From positions 62,001 through 126,000 of the forward strand of contig CP129469.1 in the NCBI GenBank assembly GCA_030583665.1: 64,000 bases of DNA, in the 5' to 3' direction. Position 1 is the stretch's first letter. Every line of letters starts with the position of its first letter. Positions 50,984 to 63,509 of the stretch are shown piece after piece. The translations under genes and the position numbers were made by a program. This DNA comes from Candidatus Jettenia sp. AMX2. Lineage in GTDB: Bacteria; Planctomycetota; Brocadiia; Brocadiales; Brocadiaceae. A model generated the notes under the pieces. It had not been told where the DNA came from, searched no databases, and saw nothing but the letters and a program-made list of their open reading frames with translations.

Positions 50984-51047
50984 ATATTAAATATGTAATA
51001 TATTGATTATTCTTTGGTCTATATGTTTCTTTCTCAGGAGATATGAT

Positions 51048-52271
51048 ATGATTGGTATATCGAAGTTATACTGTGGTACTGTTGAACCTTCCGATGCCTT
51101 GCGATATGGCAGGGAGTCCGGGAAGCTTCCGTCACATTTATTACAATTTTCCCAGGACAAAAAACCGGTTGTGGTATGGAATGTTGGGCAGCGTTGCAAC
51201 TTGAAGTGCATTCACTGTTATTCCCAGTCAAAGGATATTGAATATCCTAATGAGCTGACTACCCAGGAGGCAAAAGCCATGCTGGATGATATTGCAGAGT
51301 ATGGGGCCCCTGTGATTCTCTTTTCAGGCGGCGAGCCGCTTATGAGACCTGACCTCCTGGAACTGATTGGATATGCAAAGGGAAAAGGCTTGCGGGCTGT
51401 TATTAGTACAAATGGCACATTAATTACAAGAGATAAGGCCAATGAGTTAAAGAAATACGGATTATCTTATGTCGGGATCAGCTTGGATGGCCTTAGAACA
51501 ACGAATGACCGTTTCCGTGGTATCCCCGGTGCATTTGATGCTGCATTGGAGGGCATCAGGAATTGCATGCATGCAGGCATTAAGGTAGGCCTGCGGTTTA
51601 CTATTAACAGAAGGAATGCACATGACATACCGGGCATTTTCCAACTTATTGATGAAGAAAATATACCGCGTGTTTGTTTCTATCATCTGGTATATTCAGG
51701 CAGGGGATCTAACCTCATAGAAGAAGACCTTTCACATCAGGAAACCAGGGATGTTGTTGATCTCATCATGGATAAGACCAGAGAATCGCATGACAGAGGG
51801 AAGAAAATAGAGGTTCTTACCGTGGATAACCATGCAGACGGACCTTACGTGTATTTGAGATTGTTAAAAGAGAACCCTAAAAGGGCAGCGAAAGTATACG
51901 AACTCTTGCAATGGAACGAGGGGAATAGTTCAGGCAAGGGGCTTGCCTGTATAAGCTGGGATGGCGAGGTACATGCCGACCAATTCTGGAGGCAATATTC
52001 CTTTGGAAATGTGAAAAAAAGAAAATTCAGCGAGATATGGGAAGATACTTCCAATGAGCTGATGGCCAGGCTCAAGAACAAAAATCCATATATTAAAGGA
52101 CGTTGCGCAAAATGCAAATGGCTTGCAATTTGTAGCGGAAATTTCAGGGCAAGGGCAGAGGCATACTATGGAGATATGTGGGAACAAGACCCCGCTTGTT
52201 ACCTTACGGATGAAGAAATTGGCATTATGACTGAACTGCCAGAAAAAGAGAGACAAAAGGTGGCTATATAA
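51048..52271 (+). CDS. ahbC: AhbC/NirJ-type radical SAM protein (alternative haem or haem d1 pathway)
   Basis: Protein of 407 residues, starting MIGISKLYCGTVEPSDALRY, the characteristic opening of AhbC/NirJ enzymes. The radical SAM motif C-x3-C-x2-C (RCNLKCIHC) is at about residues 49-57, followed by FSGGEPL. A SPASM-like C-terminal cluster region has CAKC, then C, then C (AKCKWLAIC). AhbC removes acetate side chains from didecarboxysiroheme on the siroheme-dependent route to haem b; NirJ acts in haem d1 synthesis. Other pathway genes are absent, so the exact pathway is undecided. AGGAG lies 7 bases before the ATG. Confidence 0.8.
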   Translation: MIGISKLYCGTVEPSDALRYGRESGKLPSHLLQFSQDKKPVVVWNVGQRCNLKCIHCYSQSKDIEYPNELTTQEAKAMLDDIAEYGAPVILFSGGEPLMRPDLLELIGYAKGKGLRAVISTNGTLITRDKANELKKYGLSYVGISLDGLRTTNDRFRGIPGAFDAALEGIRNCMHAGIKVGLRFTINRRNAHDIPGIFQLIDEENIPRVCFYHLVYSGRGSNLIEEDLSHQETRDVVDLIMDKTRESHDRGKKIEVLTVDNHADGPYVYLRLLKENPKRAAKVYELLQWNEGNSSGKGLACISWDGEVHADQFWRQYSFGNVKKRKFSEIWEDTSNELMARLKNKNPYIKGRCAKCKWLAICSGNFRARAEAYYGDMWEQDPACYLTDEEIGIMTELPEKERQKVAI

Positions 52272-52276
52272 GATGT

Positions 52277-53098
52277 TCAATACGTAGCTTCTTTTTCTGA
52301 TGTAAGGTGTAAGGGGTTTCCGGGATACCCAAGAAGATAGGTTATGTTGATTGCTTTTACTTTCGTGGAGATTGTTTTGCCGATCTCCCATGTGTAGCCA
52401 TCACCTTTGACGGCACTCGTTAGTTCTCTTAGTTCTTTTATTGAATATGTTCTTAAATTGGAAATAATGCTATCCCATGAAATAGCTAAAGGTACAACAG
52501 GGATAAAGTAAGTCCAAAAGATTCTTGAAAAAGTTATTGGCTTCATAAAGGGTGTTGTTAAAAAAATGGTTAATGGTGTTATAATAGGGGTCAGAAGTAA
52601 GTTTTGCAGGCGCCTTTCGGTAAACTCAAAAATACAGATAGCAACCCGTTGGTCAACTGCATTCTGGAGTATAGCCTTCGCTAATTCAGGTCTGAAATGA
52701 TGAAAACCAGTAAATATTGTCCGTACCCCTTTTATATCTTCAGGTACCTTAGCCGCATCAACCGGTTCCCTAAGATAATGTATTTGTCCTTTGGACAGTT
52801 TTGAAATCCTCTCAAAGGCATGAAGATTAGGATATTTGTCTGTGAGTGTTACTGTGATGGCACCTTGTTCCTGCATTGTCACCAACTGTAAATATGTCCA
52901 GGGGCCTGAGGCTCCGGAACACAAATCAACGATTTGTGTTGTATTCATGTGCTGTAAAACCTTCTTGAGAAGTGGAATAATAGGTTCGTATAACTGAAAT
53001 GCCGTTATACCAAATTGTAACGAATCAGTTAGCAAATTACGAAACGTTGCCGGAAACCACCTTTTATCTTCCAATTCGAAGAAATGAATACGCTTCAT
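52277..53098 (-). CDS. Class I SAM-dependent methyltransferase, membrane-associated
   Basis: About 273 residues. The SAM-binding motif I is QIVDLCSGASGPW, with motif VTLTDKYPNLHAF in the second strand. A hydrophobic helical segment (LTPIITPLTIFLTTPFM...FWTYFIPVVPLAISW) lies near residues 165-210, suggesting association with the membrane or binding of a hydrophobic substrate. Substrate unknown. The start is ATG next to an alternative TTG; GGAG is about 10 bases upstream. It is convergent with ahbC (5-base gap) and 31 bases downstream of the FadL gene, with which it is probably co-transcribed. Confidence 0.8.
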   Translation of the reverse strand: MKRIHFFELEDKRWFPATFRNLLTDSLQFGITAFQLYEPIIPLLKKVLQHMNTTQIVDLCSGASGPWTYLQLVTMQEQGAITVTLTDKYPNLHAFERISKLSKGQIHYLREPVDAAKVPEDIKGVRTIFTGFHHFRPELAKAILQNAVDQRVAICIFEFTERRLQNLLLTPIITPLTIFLTTPFMKPITFSRIFWTYFIPVVPLAISWDSIISNLRTYSIKELRELTSAVKGDGYTWEIGKTISTKVKAINITYLLGYPGNPLHLTSEKEATY

Positions 53099-53131
53099 CA
53101 ATCCATAACTCCGTCCGAAGCAGAAAAGTTA

Positions 53132-55358: not shown

Positions 55359-56033
55359 AGCAAATATCCCTTCTCTTGCTCTAATCTGGAGTTACCATAA
55401 AGTAGCGTGGTTAAATATTCGCATTTTTTATACCATTATTTCCATGGATTATAAATAAATACGGTATACTTGCCGTTGATGATAGTAATTATCCGGATAA
55501 TAGGGAGAATTTTCCTGGAGATTATTTGTTTTGAATATTGACAAACCATACCTCTTTGTTATATACACATGTACAAAATTGTTCTTACACGGTCAATGAT
55601 GAACAATTATAAATGGTTTTTTCTGTTAAAATAGGCTAAAATTAGGAAGAAATGGAGTATTATTAAACAGTTGGCGTAGTAATAATAGACAATCTGGTAA
55701 TTCGATAGAAATTTAAAACGAAATGATGTCTGCACATTGAAATAAAAAATTCTATAACAGATAACTTCAAAAGACGAATCATTGAAAGAATTTAAATTAC
55801 TGCGTATAAAAAGATACGAGACAACTTGTTAATTACGATTCTTTTGGTATGGTAATTGCGCATTGCGCGTGATATAGCAAATTAACTTTCTGTAAACATT
55901 CTGGTAAGAGACCATAACAAAATGCTGAAAATGTCGATAATAGTTGTAGGTAGTATGAGGTGCATCAGAAGAAGTTATTTTCGTATCGTTCTGATCTAAA
56001 TTATATTCTGTAATTTTGATAAGGAGAGTAACT
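55359..56033. other. Non-coding spacer without recognised elements
   Basis: About 675 bases between divergent regulators, AT-rich. I found no ORF of credible composition, no RNA gene and no clear promoter of the -35/-10 type. The only feature is AAGGAG before the downstream start at 56034. Long untranslated leaders or unrecognised regulation are possible. Confidence 0.6.
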
Positions 56034-57524
56034 ATGTACTCTTTGCTGGTAGTCTCTGATGATAATTCTACTTGTAGTATTTTTAGAAAGACGTTAGATG
56101 AAAACTACATTATCTATGCTGCAAAGGAGATTGGGGAAGCATTGCAAATGCTCATGAATAGAGACATAGATATTGTATTCCTGGATATCCTTTTGCCTAA
56201 TGATGGAGCAAATAAACTTCTGGAGATGCTCCGGCAGGTAAATACGGATTCGGCGATTGTTATGATAATTCCCGAATCGCAACCGGAACTGTCTGAAGAA
56301 TCCATAAGTTCTGGAGTGTATGAACTCATAGAAAAGCCTTTAAAAAAGGATGCAATACAGCGTGTTTCAAAAAGGATTATGGAAAGTCAGGCACTGAAAA
56401 GAGAGATTGGTTTTGTTCAATCCCAGATAAAAAGGTTAAAACCGGAAACCTATGGTACGCCGGCAACGGTTTTCAGTAAATCGACCAATATGAATGAATC
56501 GTACCTTACGCATATGACCTATAAAGAAATCTTTCAAAAATTTTCAAAGGCGTTAACACAGTTTTATAATGCCGGAAAACTTGCTGATTTGATTATTGAA
56601 GCACTTGCTGAGATATTTAAGGTGGGGAGAATAGTATTTATACTTATTCAGCCCAAAGAGGGCTTAAGCAGGCCCTACCGTTGTCTTGGTTTTGATGTGG
56701 CAACTATGAGAAATATCTACTTTGGCAATAGTCAGGGTATGATACATTGGTTATCCAAAAATCATCAGATATTAAACAAGGTGGTACTGGACCGGGAGAT
56801 CGAAATGAATCAGATAAGTGTTCGGGATGCAATAAATATACAGAAGGAACTGAATCTTTTGCAAGCACAACTGTGCATGCCCGTTTTTGCTAGCGGAAAC
56901 CTGCGTGGGGTAATTACTTTAGGAAATAAGATTACAGGAAAGGCATTTTTTGATGAGGATATTGAAATGCTGTCTATGCTTGCCGGGTATATTGGTATGG
57001 CAATGGAGAATGCATTTTTGTATCAGGAAATAAATCTCCGGAAAATTCATAGCGAAAATGTATTAGAGAGTATTCCTTATGGTATTGTTACCATAGATAC
57101 AGGGTATAAAGTAAATACCATTAATAAAAGCGCTGCGAGAATGCTGGATATCCTTCCTGAAAATGTGCTGGGCAGGGATGTAAAACACATTGGTTCTGTA
57201 TTTGCGGATTTTCTCTTACGAACAATAAAAGAAAAAAAAACCTACAAAATGAAAGAGGTTATCCATCCTGTTACCAATGCTATTTATGATGTGAGTACGT
57301 CATTACTGGTTGATTGTGACCAGGAACTTGGTGCTATTATGATATTTTCTGATCTTAGTGAAGTCGTTAAGATAGAAACGAAGATAAGGGATCTGGAAAA
57401 AATGGTAGTTGCATATGTTGGAAAACCTGATAATACGATTCCCAACGATATTACACAGGCTGTTGCAAGTCTTTCTAAAGACTGGATTTCCGAACGACAG
57501 CGTTTGCTTTTAAAGCATGATTAA
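56034..57524 (+). CDS. Receiver-GAF-PAS signalling protein without output domain
   Basis: Protein of 496 residues. Receiver domain (residues about 1-120) with VSDDN and the phospho-acceptor in IVFLDILLP, and KPLKK at the end. A GAF domain (about 165-330) includes MPVFASGNLRGVITLGNK. A PAS domain follows (about 345-450) with VLESIPYGIVTIDTGYKVNTINKSA. No histidine kinase, GGDEF or helix-turn-helix output is present, so it may relay signals through protein interaction. ATG preferred over an upstream TTG, with AAGGAG 8 bases before. Confidence 0.85.
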   Translation: MYSLLVVSDDNSTCSIFRKTLDENYIIYAAKEIGEALQMLMNRDIDIVFLDILLPNDGANKLLEMLRQVNTDSAIVMIIPESQPELSEESISSGVYELIEKPLKKDAIQRVSKRIMESQALKREIGFVQSQIKRLKPETYGTPATVFSKSTNMNESYLTHMTYKEIFQKFSKALTQFYNAGKLADLIIEALAEIFKVGRIVFILIQPKEGLSRPYRCLGFDVATMRNIYFGNSQGMIHWLSKNHQILNKVVLDREIEMNQISVRDAINIQKELNLLQAQLCMPVFASGNLRGVITLGNKITGKAFFDEDIEMLSMLAGYIGMAMENAFLYQEINLRKIHSENVLESIPYGIVTIDTGYKVNTINKSAARMLDILPENVLGRDVKHIGSVFADFLLRTIKEKKTYKMKEVIHPVTNAIYDVSTSLLVDCDQELGAIMIFSDLSEVVKIETKIRDLEKMVVAYVGKPDNTIPNDITQAVASLSKDWISERQRLLLKHD

Positions 57525-57879: not shown

Positions 57880-59667
57880 ATGGAGAAGTTCCGGAATATT
57901 GATCTTCTGCTATGGAATTCATTCATGGGGAAGGCCTATTCTCTTAGTGACTGCTTTAAGGAAAACGGAATTGGTATACTGGCAAGGGCATGTAAAGATG
58001 CAGGGCAGCATATTATTGTTGAAGACCCTGCAAAAATTGATTTTTATGTGTCCTTTACAAAAAACGATCTTATGCCAAGATTGTCTGAACTTTCCCGGTG
58101 TATATTCACAAAGAATAGTGCGAAAGAAGATAGTATCTCAATGAGGAAAGAATGGAACCTCCTTCAGGAAAATCTCAGAAAGGTTATCAGTGAAAGAATG
58201 GAAAATTATATCGGTGCTTTGGCCCGAAAGATACGCGACAATCATATAAAAGTACTCGGAATAAAGACATGGCTTGGCGACAGGTTTGCATATTCAGAAA
58301 GATTGACGCACAAAGTAAACGAGCTAAGTCCCGACACCCTTGTAATTGCCGGTGGCCCTCAGGTAAACCAGTTTAAGACACACGCCCTGGAGAAGAGCCC
58401 GTTCGATTTCTGTATCGATAGTGAAGGAGAGGTAACACTAACAAGAATTGTTTCTGCGGTTAATGAAATGTATTCTCAGGGAAGGTCGAAATTTGAGGTA
58501 ATAAGGAAAATTACCTCACTGGCAGAAGAGGGCACTATTTTTAATCTGATATACAGAAACAGTGCAGGAAAAGTGAAAGAGACCGGCATCAGGAGACTTC
58601 CTTTAAGCTCGAAGCCTTTTCCTTTTTATGAAAAGGAAGACGGAAAGGTAAATATAGCGGTAATAAGTGAATCATCGGGTTGTTATTATGGGAAATGCAA
58701 TTTTTGTACACATCCGAATATTACGGGAAGATATCAGCCGAGGGACGTTGGTGTAACGATTGAAGAGATTAAAAAAACCATGAAAGAATCAGGTACCGGG
58801 CTCTTCAGATTTGCAGGTTCCACAACGCCTGTTTTCCTTGGCAGGAAAATTGCTAGGGCAATAGTAGAAGAAGGCTTAATAATAGAATATTCGATGTTTG
58901 TCCGGGTAGAGGCAAATGCATGTGAACGAATGGCAGAGCTAATAGATTCTTATGAAAAGATCATAGATTCGGGGTTACGGGCTGTTTTTTTGGGTGTTGA
59001 GGCGGCCAATAACGAAATCCTTACAAAAATCATGAATAAAGGCATTTCCGTAGAGGATGCGTACTACACGATTAAGGCGATAAAGCAGGCATCTTATAAC
59101 CGGAAGAAACACCTCGACGTAGGGGTGAGTTTTATTTATCCCTGCCCGCTGCCTCATGACAGTATAATGCACGGACAGGTACTGGAGGAAAATTTACATT
59201 TACTTCGCACATTAAAGGATGAAAATTACAGCCCCGATTCCGTTCTTATCACACCCGGTGCGCCTTTGCCTGCAACAAACTGGCAGTTAGAACCCGGGCG
59301 GTTTGGCTTTGAACTACCCGAGGATTATCTGCAAACTATTTTACGGTATGAATACGAATTGACAAAGGATCCCAGTACCTGGCCTGAACTAAATATCTCC
59401 TTACAGGGGATAAAATTTCTGGATATGCTTAAGATGTCAGGATTGATGGAGAAAAAAGTCCGTGAAATAGGTTATACGGTGAATGTTTCTGATGAGCATT
59501 GCCTTGCGGCAAGAAGTGCTGGATTTACTGGCCAGGCTGGCCTGGAGGAATTCAAAATAAAGGGCAACATGGCCTTGATGACAACCAATTATCATTTTCT
59601 AAAGGACGTGTATCACAGAATTAATCAATACAGCAGCAGGCTGGCTGAAAAGAACTCTTTCTTGTAG
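57880..59667 (+). CDS. B12-binding-type radical SAM protein
   Basis: Protein of 595 residues. N-terminal region has the beta-alpha pattern of a B12-binding domain (VLGIKTWLGDRFA, DTLVIAGGPQVNQFK, FDFCIDSEGE), without the DxHxxG lower-ligand motif. The radical SAM cluster is SGCYYGKCNFC with C-x4-C-x2-C spacing, an accepted variant in this family. The core ends near residue 420. Start chosen at the ATG with AAAGGAG nine bases upstream. It is the first gene of an operon with a ketosynthase (27-base gap) and a histidine kinase (11-base gap). The reaction is unknown; a carbon-skeleton or lipid modification is plausible. Confidence 0.85.
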   Translation: MEKFRNIDLLLWNSFMGKAYSLSDCFKENGIGILARACKDAGQHIIVEDPAKIDFYVSFTKNDLMPRLSELSRCIFTKNSAKEDSISMRKEWNLLQENLRKVISERMENYIGALARKIRDNHIKVLGIKTWLGDRFAYSERLTHKVNELSPDTLVIAGGPQVNQFKTHALEKSPFDFCIDSEGEVTLTRIVSAVNEMYSQGRSKFEVIRKITSLAEEGTIFNLIYRNSAGKVKETGIRRLPLSSKPFPFYEKEDGKVNIAVISESSGCYYGKCNFCTHPNITGRYQPRDVGVTIEEIKKTMKESGTGLFRFAGSTTPVFLGRKIARAIVEEGLIIEYSMFVRVEANACERMAELIDSYEKIIDSGLRAVFLGVEAANNEILTKIMNKGISVEDAYYTIKAIKQASYNRKKHLDVGVSFIYPCPLPHDSIMHGQVLEENLHLLRTLKDENYSPDSVLITPGAPLPATNWQLEPGRFGFELPEDYLQTILRYEYELTKDPSTWPELNISLQGIKFLDMLKMSGLMEKKVREIGYTVNVSDEHCLAARSAGFTGQAGLEEFKIKGNMALMTTNYHFLKDVYHRINQYSSRLAEKNSFL

Positions 59668-59694
59668 GAAAGCTCTTTTAGGAGGGAAAGTTCT

Positions 59695-60939
59695 ATGCGA
59701 ACAAGACGTGTTGTTGTAACTGGCTTAGGGATATTGGCCCCCAATGGTAATGGTAAGGACGCATATTGGGATGCACTTATCCATGGGCGGTCAGGGATAA
59801 GGAAGATTGCTTCGTTTGATCCCTCTCCTTTTAATACACAAATTGCAGGAGAAGTAAAGGATTTCGATCCTTGTGAATATTTTGATCCGAAATTGGTTAA
59901 AAGAAGTGGCAGGTTTACCCATTTTGGCATTGCAACGGCAAAGATGGCGGTAAAGGATTCTGCAATCGATTTCAACAAGGAGAACCCTGAGAGATGTGGT
60001 GTGTGTTTCGGAACAACAATCGGGGCGGAGAATGATATCTATGAAGGCCAGCATAAAAAATTCCTGAACTCTGGCCCAAAAGCGGTAAGCCGCTTTACGT
60101 CTTCTGAATTTACACCACACATAACAACGGGTTATGTCTGTTCAGAACTAAAGATTACCGGACCTAATTCTACGGTATCCTCAGGATGTTCCACGGGTCT
60201 TGATGTTGTGAACTGGGGGTATAATATGGTAAAACGGGGGGCAGTGGATATCGCAGTTGTAGGAAGCTCTGACGCCCCGATCTTCCCCTTTGCCATGGCT
60301 ACCTTCTGCGCCCTCGGAATCTTGTCGAAAAGAAATGAAGATCCCGAGAAGGCCTCACGGCCATATGATAGAGACCGTGACGGCATGGTACTTAGCGAAG
60401 GTGGCGCTTCGATAGTAATGGAAGAGTTAAACCATGCCTTAGAAAGAGGGGCAGATATCTATGCCGAGATCATATCCTGTGCATCTGCATCTGATGGCCT
60501 GGATGTTCTTCGGGTTGATTTGGAAGGGATGGGATTGGTTACGGCACTGGAACAGGCATTGGGTGCCGGGAGGGTCAGAAAAGATGAGATCGATTATATT
60601 TGTGCCCATGGGAATGCTATCCCAAGCTATGATATATCAGAAACAAATGCCTTAAAGGCTTTTTTCGGAGAGCGTGCGTATAAAATCCCGGTAAGTTCGA
60701 TTAAGTCTATGACAGGGCAACCTTTTGCTGCCGGAGGGGGGTTTCAGGTAGTAGCAACATGCCTTAGCCTTAAAAATGGTATTATCCCGCCCACCATAAA
60801 TTTGGATATACCTGATCCACTCTGTGACCTTGATTATGTACCACGTTATGCACGCTATTTCACTATGGACACAGCATTGATAAACAGCCATAGTGTTGGC
60901 GGTACTCATTCCGTACTCATATTAAGAAAATATTTTTAG
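59695..60939 (+). CDS. FabF-like beta-ketoacyl synthase with His to Gln change at the second His
   Basis: Condensing enzyme of 414 residues. Nucleophile Cys165 in SSGCSTGLDVV, first His305 in CAHGNAIPSYD, and conserved Lys in IKSMTG are all present. The second catalytic His (His340 in E. coli FabF, SMTGH) reads Gln342 (SMTGQPFAAGG). Offsets to E. coli numbering are a constant +2, so the assignment is firm. This C-H-Q arrangement could mean altered decarboxylation or condensation. No acyl carrier protein or other fab gene lies nearby. AGGAGG precedes the ATG. It is the middle gene of the radical SAM operon. Confidence 0.9.
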   Translation: MRTRRVVVTGLGILAPNGNGKDAYWDALIHGRSGIRKIASFDPSPFNTQIAGEVKDFDPCEYFDPKLVKRSGRFTHFGIATAKMAVKDSAIDFNKENPERCGVCFGTTIGAENDIYEGQHKKFLNSGPKAVSRFTSSEFTPHITTGYVCSELKITGPNSTVSSGCSTGLDVVNWGYNMVKRGAVDIAVVGSSDAPIFPFAMATFCALGILSKRNEDPEKASRPYDRDRDGMVLSEGGASIVMEELNHALERGADIYAEIISCASASDGLDVLRVDLEGMGLVTALEQALGAGRVRKDEIDYICAHGNAIPSYDISETNALKAFFGERAYKIPVSSIKSMTGQPFAAGGGFQVVATCLSLKNGIIPPTINLDIPDPLCDLDYVPRYARYFTMDTALINSHSVGGTHSVLILRKYF

Positions 60940-60950
60940 ACAGGAAGATT

Positions 60951-63509
60951 ATGCCAGCTCACCAGGTAGTGTTTCTTTTTTTATCTCTATTGATTGCCGG
61001 ACTGGGTTTGTTTGTCTTTTTAAGGAACCCGGTAAATAGTATTAATAAAAGATTTTGTATTTTTTCAAGCGCTATTTCTATATGGATAGCATTTAACTTT
61101 TTTATACACTTGTCTCTGGAAGCGGAGATAATTATTTTTAGAGTAAGATTGGTTTTCTGTTCTGCTGCTTTTATTCCTTTTACGTTTTTCTTTTTTTCTT
61201 CAATTTTTCCTGACCTTGAAGAGAAACATATCGATAGGTATCTAACTATATTATTCTTTTCTATAAGTATTTTTTTTGTGGTTTTTTCTTCAAAAAATGT
61301 TGATAGTGTATTCTTTGATAAAAATACACCCTATATTAAGCATGGTAAGTTGTTTCCTTTGTTCTGGCTATATTTTATATCTTGTATGGCATATTCATTA
61401 TATAACCTTTACAAAAAAAGTATTAACTATTACGGAATAAAGAGATTGCAGATACAATATGTATTCCTGGGAGTCGCACTATCAGTGTTTTTAGGGGTTG
61501 TTACAAATTTTATTTTGCCTTTATTGAATATTTGGCATGCCGAGATGTATGTGCCCCTGGTGTCCATTCCTATCCCCGTGGCAGTAGCGTATGCTATTGT
61601 AAGATATCATCTCATGGATATTAGTGTAGTAATCAAGCGGGGTACTGTTTATTTTATCCTAACGATAATTCTTGGTGGAGTTTATTCTGTTGTTGGATTA
61701 TTTCTGAGCAGCATACTTCCTGTGTCGGAATATAAAAACACCGTCACAACAATAACTTCCACAGTTATAACAGTCTTAACACTAGCATTTACAAGAGACT
61801 ACATTCAAAACATTGTCGAAAAAACCCTGTTTCATATCCGGTATAGCCATTCAAAGATCCTCAGTGACTCCACATTGTTATTTTCGTCTATTCATGAACT
61901 GAATGAACTCCTCTGTAATGCGATTCAATATTTGTATGATTCTGTAGGTATTGAAAAAATATGCATACTGATGAACGGTGCTGAGGCGAAAAACTATATT
62001 CCAAAGGCATCGATAAATTTTTCCTCTCCGGAGAGTTTATCTCTTTCCTGCCAGGATGCCATTGTTACCTGGCTTTATCAGAACAGGATCGTTCTCTCGA
62101 GAGATCATCTACAACGTTTTGCTAGGAGAAAATCTGACCATTTTCTGGAGGATACAATGGCATCCCTGGGTGTTGAGATCTGTATTCCGGTTTTCCAGGA
62201 TGAAGACCTTGTTGGTATCATCCTTTTGGGAAAGAAGATAAACAAAAAGATTTTTACGCAGGAAGATATCCAGATGTTTCTGGCCTTTTCCGGTCAGCTT
62301 GCAATGGCAGCCAGTAACGCACGCCTCTATATGGGCTTAAGAGAGGCAAAAATATACAGGGACAACATTCTGCAGTGCCTGAAAAATGGTGTCATTGTTG
62401 TGGATAACGATGGGCATGTGACCATTATGAATAGTGAAGCGAAAAGAATCCTCGGTTTAAAGGAGACCAATTCAATACTACTGAGAAATACTGGCGATGA
62501 CATTTCCCGTGCAATCGGTTATACATTGAAAAGCGATATTGAGTATCAGAATATTGAAATACTGATCGACAACGGAATAAAGAAAATACCCTGTGGAATA
62601 ACAACAACAAGGCTGAAGACTGAAGGTGGAGAGGTAATTGGCGCCCTGGCTATTTTAACCGATTTAACAGAATTAAAATTGCTTCAGGCAGAAAAACAAC
62701 ATGCAGACCATCTTGCCCGGCTTGGAACCCTTTCTGCCCATATCGCACATGAAATAAAAAATCCGCTGGTAGCTATCAATACCTATTTTCAATTGCTCCC
62801 TTATAAGAAAAATGATGAGGAATTTCATAACGACTTTCAGAAAATCGCAGTAAAAGAAATAGACAGGATTAACCGGATAATAGAAGATTTGTTAGATCTT
62901 GCAAAACCTTCCAAACCTGTCTCTCAGGCGATGGACCCTTGCTCTGTCATTACAGATACGGTTAATTTTCTTAAAAATACCGCCGCCGAGAAAAATATCG
63001 GAATAACTACCGTCTTTGAGGAAAAGAACTGTCAGGTTCTTGCAGACGAGGATAAGATAAAACAGGTGCTTTTGAATATTCTGCAAAATAGTATTGAAGC
63101 GCTGCAGATACATGGGCGTATTGAGGTAACCACCTTTGTGATAGAAAATCCTTTTGATTACAGAAAAATGGCAAAGACAAAACCCGGCAGTGTTTTCTTT
63201 TCCTTTGCACCGGATTCACAGCGGCACATATCGAAAAGTCCATATTTTGTTATTAAGGTTTACGATAACGGTACCGGAATATCTGCTGAAAAGGTGCCGC
63301 ATATTTTTGAACCGTTTTTTACCGATAAAGAGAAAGGTACCGGTCTGGGCCTCGCCCTTGTATATAGAATTCTAAAAGATCATTATGGATTTATGTATGT
63401 TGAAAGCAAAGAAGGTTCCGGAACAATTTTCTATATTGGCCTGCCGTTGAATCCAATAAATGTTGATAGTGATGTCAGTTCTTTCATAAATACCAGGGAT
63501 TTATCCTAA
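60951..63509 (+). CDS. Membrane-bound sensor histidine kinase (7-8 TM, GAF, PAS, HisKA, HATPase)
   Basis: Protein of 852 residues. Residues 1-290 hold seven or eight membrane helices. A GAF-like domain spans about 300-465, with [26 protein letters not shown] domain follows about 475-590 ([18 protein letters not shown]). The phospho-acceptor His600 is in [15 protein letters not shown]. The HATPase has the N box ([12 protein letters not shown]), G1 (YDNGTGIS) and G2 ([13 protein letters not shown]). It resembles NtrB/PrsK-type kinases. No response regulator follows; the REC-GAF-PAS protein upstream is a possible partner. Confidence 0.9.

What the first reader, a model, noticed from the sequence alone, without database searches (positions are those of the whole stretch)
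57880..63509. Radical SAM - ketosynthase - histidine kinase operon with a C-H-Q ketosynthase
Sequence shows a three-gene cluster with gaps of 27 and 11 bases. The ketosynthase keeps Cys165 and His305 but has Gln342 where E. coli FabF has His340. Established knowledge: radical SAM enzymes and FabF-like ketosynthases have been proposed for ladderane lipid synthesis in anammox bacteria, without a solved pathway. Inference: this operon could act on an unusual acyl chain and be controlled by the linked membrane kinase.
Basis: partly seen in the sequence, partly recalled or inferred. Interest (0 to 1): 0.68.

Follow-up and report, generated by a model that had tools for sequence, protein, structure and literature searches.

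The report
Altered ketosynthase operon in some anammox
A real, conserved three-gene operon in Brocadia-type anammox bacteria pairs a B12-type radical SAM enzyme with a fatty-acid ketosynthase whose active site is extensively rebuilt, but the proven ladderane producer Kuenenia stuttgartiensis lacks it, so it looks like an accessory pathway and not the core ladderane machinery.

Summary
The operon is real: B12-binding radical SAM enzyme (57880-59667), ketosynthase (59695-60939), membrane histidine kinase (60951-63509), gaps 27 and 11 bp. It is syntenic and under purifying selection across Brocadiaceae. Gln342 does sit at E. coli FabF His340, but it is not the defining feature: 19 of 26 distinct orthologues have Gln, while one nested clade of seven has His. 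Fixed in every orthologue are other pocket changes relative to FabF: Thr305Asn, Thr307Ile/Met, Glu349Gln, Phe398His, Phe400Val, Asn404His. The ladderane reading is not supported: the complete Kuenenia stuttgartiensis genome lacks both radical SAM and ketosynthase, 21 other hydrazine-synthase-positive genomes of the order lack the radical SAM gene, and this genome carries published ladderane-candidate gene types elsewhere. Some relatives have a larger form with a chain-length-factor-like ketosynthase, a canonical ketosynthase, an acyl carrier protein and a sigma-54 response regulator; a sigma-54-type promoter precedes the upstream regulator in 16 of 19 loci. Best reading: a two-component/sigma-54-regulated, carrier-protein-linked acyl-modification module, with a class B radical SAM (probably methyltransferase) and a ketosynthase repurposed for acyl transfer or non-standard condensation. 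The chemistry is untested.

The parts
57880..59667 (+). Class B-like (B12-binding) radical SAM protein, 595 aa; Rossmann-type N-domain, CX4CX2C cluster motif (Cys268, Cys273, Cys276), conserved C-terminal domain with NVSDEHCLAARSAGF
   Evidence: Pfam Radical_SAM 4.1e-11 and B12-binding 1.5e-6; invariant CYYGKC.FC in orthologues, CHYGKCNFC and CTWGQCNFC in distant homologues; Foldseek best hits TsrM and TokK
58681..58707 (+). Fe-S cluster motif C-YYGK-C-NF-C of the radical SAM protein
   Evidence: the three Cys are invariant in alignment A2
59695..60939 (+). FabF-like ketosynthase with Cys165-His305-Lys337 kept and pocket residues changed (Asn307, Ile309, Gln342, Gln351, His399, Val401, His405)
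   Evidence: Pfam, PDB alignments, E. coli FabF alignment over 26 orthologues
60187..60189 (+). codon of catalytic Cys165
60607..60609 (+). codon of His305 (FabF His303)
60718..60720 (+). codon CAA of Gln342 (FabF His340); CAT (His) in one orthologue clade
60889..60909 (+). His399-Ser-Val401-Gly-Gly-Thr-His405, replacing the FabF FGFGGTN gating loop
   Evidence: His399, Ser400, Val401 and His405 in 26 of 26 orthologues
60951..63509 (+). Membrane histidine kinase, 852 aa: 7TM-GAF-PAS-HisKA-HATPase
   Evidence: Pfam; follows the KS in nearly all Brocadiaceae loci that reach that far
56016..57524 (+). Upstream RR-GAF-PAS protein, no HATPase here; part of the conserved neighbourhood
   Evidence: homologue in L069 keeps an HATPase domain
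55845..55860 (+). sigma-54-type promoter element TGGTATGGTAATTGCG upstream of the RR-GAF-PAS gene
   Evidence: similar element in 16 of 19 orthologous loci within 500 bp versus 4% of shuffled regions; consensus match only

Best explanation
An accessory, carrier-protein-linked acyl-modification operon of Brocadiaceae, not the core ladderane pathway. Inferred mechanism: the radical SAM/B12 protein modifies (most likely C-methylates) an acyl group. The ketosynthase takes an acyl chain on Cys165 but, with its malonyl-handling and gating residues replaced (T305N, T307I, E349Q, F398H, F400V, N404H, and H340Q in most), does not work as an ordinary FabF chain extender; it transfers the chain or condenses it with a different nucleophile. 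The extended form of the cluster supplies its own carrier protein and KS/chain-length-factor pair; in the window the module would rely on carrier proteins encoded elsewhere. Expression is tied to two-component/sigma-54 control, with the 7TM kinase as sensor. Shown: gene content, conservation, residue changes, distribution. Inferred: substrate, reaction, regulation.
For: Conserved rSAM-KS-HK order in more than 15 loci from several genera; KS dN/dS 0.03-0.09 and rSAM 0.03-0.11, though dS is near saturation for many pairs; pocket or gate positions fixed or near-fixed in 26 of 26 orthologues and different from FabF; 5 of the 8 positions in the published FabB/F active-site table differ from typical (PMC2649909); F400, loop 2 and Asn404 are the FabF gate (PMC7138838); ACP, canonical KS and CLF-like KS between regulator and rSAM in extended clusters; rSAM resembles TsrM and TokK, B12-dependent radical SAM methyltransferases; sigma-54-type sites in 16 of 19 loci and a sigma-54-activator response regulator in extended loci; absence from K. 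stuttgartiensis.
Against: No product, transcript or enzyme data. Cys, His and Lys are kept and one clade has Cys-His-His, so ordinary decarboxylative condensation is not excluded, at least there. The KS structure model failed (mean pLDDT 37) and the rSAM model is only moderate (61; TM about 0.4-0.5). No sigma-54-type site was found directly in front of the radical SAM gene in the window.
Confidence: 0.5

Rival explanations
1. The operon makes or tailors ladderane lipids: radical SAM cyclises or modifies and the KS handles the ladderane acyl chain.
For: Within 392 sampled Planctomycetota genomes the close operon is confined to the anammox order; KS and B12 radical SAM pairs are published ladderane candidates.
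Against: Absent from complete K. stuttgartiensis, which makes ladderanes and whose eight KS matches are all other genes; radical SAM gene absent from 21 further HZS-positive genomes. The window genome has kuste2804/2805-type and kuste3605/3606-type pairs elsewhere.
Confidence: 0.08
2. The operon makes a diffusible acyl signal that is sensed by the co-encoded 7TM histidine kinase, an autoregulated signalling circuit.
For: Kinase reproducibly the last gene; regulators flank the biosynthetic genes and a sigma-54-type promoter precedes the upstream regulator.
Against: No ligand data; 7TM-GAF-PAS kinases sense many cues; regulators may respond to envelope or redox state.
Confidence: 0.2
3. The KS is an ordinary decarboxylating FabF-type extender with altered substrate preference; Gln342 is a tolerated substitution.
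For: Cys, His and Lys retained; His342 present in 7 of 26 orthologues; best NCBIfam match is fabF, 415 bits versus cutoff 493.75.
Against: T305, T307, E349, F400 and N404 are all replaced in every orthologue; the outgroup orthologue also has Gln.
Confidence: 0.2

Closest known systems
FabF (KASII) family
   Same: About 40% identity over full length; catalytic Cys, first His and Lys kept
   Different: T305N, T307I, H268D, H340Q/H, E349Q, F398H, F400V, N404H; below the NCBIfam fabF cutoff
Kuenenia FabF/B paralogue pairs kuste2804/2805 and kuste3605/3606 with radical SAM genes (Rattray 2009)
   Same: KS genes next to radical SAM genes in anammox; non-canonical KS sites including Gln at position 342 of FabB numbering
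   Different: Those non-canonical partners lost Cys and first His (chain-length-factor-like); here both are kept; different clade, different radical SAM, absent from Kuenenia
Class B (cobalamin-dependent) radical SAM methyltransferases TsrM and TokK
   Same: N-terminal Rossmann cobalamin-type domain plus radical SAM domain; best fold and profile matches
   Different: 10-14% identity; CX4CX2C motif; own C-terminal domain; no NCBIfam model above cutoff
rSAM_ladder_B12 (TIGR04072)
   Same: B12-binding radical SAM, weak similarity (54 bits)
   Different: Far below the 360-bit cutoff; a better match lies elsewhere in the genome (325 bits)

Membership tests
FabF beta-ketoacyl-ACP synthase II | Cys-His-His triad with Lys | tested here: not met
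   Cys165, His305, Lys337 present; Gln342 in the window KS; His in 7 of 26 orthologues
FabF beta-ketoacyl-ACP synthase II | GTxT threonines and GFGGxN gating loop | tested here: not met
   HGNAIP and HSVGGTH in the window; changed in 26 of 26
FabF beta-ketoacyl-ACP synthase II | NCBIfam TIGR03150 equivalog cutoff 493.75 bits | tested here: not met
   415.3 bits; the broader subfamily model NF005589 is passed, 396.4 versus 387
FabF beta-ketoacyl-ACP synthase II | decarboxylative malonyl-ACP condensation | not testable with these tools
   needs enzyme assay
Chain-length factor (inactive KS partner) | catalytic Cys lost | tested here: not met
   Cys165 kept in 26 of 26
Ladderane-candidate clusters of Rattray 2009 | orthologue present in K. 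stuttgartiensis | tested here: not met
   no rSAM match at 1e-40 and no orthologous KS among the eight KS matches of G021
Class B radical SAM | B12-binding domain plus radical SAM domain with three-Cys motif | tested here: met
   Pfam both domains, B12-binding slightly under gathering cutoff, 28.4 versus 32.1; fold hits TsrM/TokK; CX4CX2C spacing unusual
Class B radical SAM methyltransferase | methyl transfer activity | not testable with these tools
   needs assay

The most novel reading that the evidence does not exclude
A new ketosynthase subclass in which the new His residues of the rewritten gating loop (His399, His405) take over from the second catalytic His and the threonines, giving a non-malonyl condensation or acyl-transfer reaction coupled to a new cobalamin radical SAM subfamily, producing an undescribed acyl lipid or signal in Brocadiaceae.
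Probability: 0.25. Interest if true: 0.65.

Novelty: new variant of a known kind. Interest (0 to 1): 0.42.

Why it matters
It separates this operon from the ladderane problem, which saves misdirected co-expression work. It also defines a KS clade whose natural Gln/His split on an otherwise fixed, rebuilt pocket is a ready comparison for asking what the second catalytic residue does, beside an uncharacterised cobalamin radical SAM subfamily.

Tried and rejected
AlphaFold of the KS: mean pLDDT 37, unusable, so a structure-based alignment was not obtained; the sequence alignment is ungapped and has natural His in the same column. First sigma-54 scan used a wrong offset for the GC dinucleotide and found nothing (void); corrected. 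Raw two-mismatch sigma-54 matches in the window are at chance level (30 versus 27.9); only positional conservation across loci argues for the element. A literature search for a Cys-His-Gln ketosynthase gave no listed paper containing that term. Pseudogene idea rejected: dN/dS well below 1. Split radical SAM reading frames in G003 and G016 and extra partial copies in G009 are probably frameshifts or contamination of assemblies; not tested further.

Full report
Observation. The three genes are present exactly as described, with gaps of 27 and 11 bp and ribosome-binding-like sites before each start. The window is part of a 3.46 Mb single-contig genome that carries two hydrazine synthase alpha hits, so it is an anammox bacterium; its only listed same-genus genome, G022, corresponds to Candidatus Loosdrechtia aerotolerans: its operon contig has the same length, 72,982 bases, as the contig of L009. 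Domain scans confirm B12-binding/radical SAM, ketosynthase and 7TM-GAF-PAS-HisKA-HATPase kinase.

Gln342. The KS aligns without gaps to FabF around KSMTG(H/Q); Gln342 equals FabF His340, with Cys165, His305 and Lys337 kept. Across 26 distinct orthologues Gln occurs in 19 and His in 7. The tree puts the seven His rows in one supported group nested within Gln rows, and the earliest-branching orthologue (G034, 61% identity) has Gln, so Gln is the simplest ancestral state of the clade and His a later return by a CAA/CAG to CAT-type change. All six His loci whose upstream region is known carry the extra KS upstream; two Gln loci (L073, L078) carry it too; the other Gln loci examined do not.

The fixed changes matter more. 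In all 26 orthologues the FabF positions Thr305, Phe398, Phe400, Asn404 and Glu349 are Asn, His, Val, His and Gln; Thr307 is Ile or Met and loop-2 His268 is Asp or Glu (literature numbering is one less than the gene numbering printed there). In the eight-position active-site table of Rattray et al. (PMC2649909) the window KS keeps Cys163, His298 and Lys328 and differs at Thr300, Thr302, His333, Glu342 and Phe392 (FabB numbering). Phe400, loop 2 and Asn404 form the FabF substrate gate (PMC7138838). The KS evolves under purifying selection, so this is a working protein with a changed pocket. Outside the order the best matches in 392 Planctomycetota genomes are at most 44% identical; the few I inspected lack these motifs.

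Distribution and the ladderane test. Close radical SAM orthologues (E below 1e-40) occur in 26 of 62 genomes of the order, all but one in the same family. Of 40 genomes positive for hydrazine synthase alpha, 22 have no such match (G021 among them), and one more (G026) has only a contig-end fragment plus a KS orthologue. Absence in draft genomes can be incompleteness, but G021 is a single 4.4 Mb contig whose HZS-alpha is identical over 782 residues to PDB 5c2v, the K. stuttgartiensis enzyme (organism from my own knowledge), and whose KS set includes copies with the published kuste3606 and kuste2805 residue signatures. It has eight KS matches and none is this one. K. stuttgartiensis makes ladderanes (PMC2649909). 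The window genome has its own kuste2804/2805-type and kuste3605/3606-type KS pairs with neighbouring radical SAM genes at other places. Ladderane synthesis therefore does not need this operon. That the HZS-positive genomes other than Kuenenia make ladderanes is assumed from anammox biology, not tested. Beyond the order, a 37% full-length radical SAM homologue lies in G362, next to an AMP-binding ligase and without a neighbouring KS; no HZS hit was found there, in a draft of 81% completeness.

Extended clusters and regulation. Several Brocadia-type loci have, upstream of the radical SAM gene, a chain-length-factor-like KS (Cys displaced by one position in the active-site motif, first His lost), a canonical Cys-His-His KS, an acyl carrier protein and a sigma-54-activator response regulator. 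The upstream RR-GAF-PAS gene is preceded by an element close to TGGYAY-N5-TTGC in 16 of 19 loci within 500 bp, against 4% of mononucleotide-shuffled regions; the Loosdrechtia copy matches the consensus perfectly. The sequences are related, so the loci are not independent trials. In the window lineage the carrier protein, KS pair and sigma-54 regulator gene are missing from the cluster. Whether the extended form is ancestral or gained is not settled: the outgroup G034 locus has the sigma-54 regulator but not the KS pair.

Radical SAM protein. The CX4CX2C motif is invariant and kept in both the 53% and 37% homologues. No NCBIfam model passes its cutoff. A profile search touches TokK (E 0.0014), and a moderate-confidence model matches TsrM and TokK best, which favours the cobalamin-dependent methyltransferase class without proving it.

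Conclusion. The most likely function is an accessory, regulated acyl-modifying module with a repurposed KS (confidence about 0.5). Gene content, residues and distribution are shown; substrate, chemistry and regulation are inferred.

Noticed in passing
window 55845-55860: Sigma-54-type promoter element upstream of the RR-GAF-PAS gene, positionally conserved in 16 of 19 related loci.
   Followed up: partly
L010, L019, L073, L076, L078: Extended clusters with CLF-like KS, canonical KS, ACP (ACP confirmed by Pfam in L073 and L076) and, in L078, a sigma-54 response regulator upstream of the radical SAM gene.
   Followed up: partly
window 58681-58707: Radical SAM motif spacing CX4CX2C, conserved in distant homologues L069 and L067.
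   Followed up: partly
window 56016-57524: RR-GAF-PAS protein without HATPase domain, whose homologue in L069 is a full hybrid kinase; tandem duplicate in L008, L012 and L014.
   Followed up: no
window 51003-52271: Radical SAM/SPASM protein over the NCBIfam cutoff for AhbC, 12,18-didecarboxysiroheme deacetylase (737 versus 650 bits).
   Followed up: no
L069 8300-9673: A second B12-binding radical SAM gene directly downstream of the KS in G034.
   Followed up: no
window 52277-53101 (- strand): 274-aa protein with no Pfam or NCBIfam match, conserved about 70% in L070 and L077 beside the FadL-like gene.
   Followed up: no
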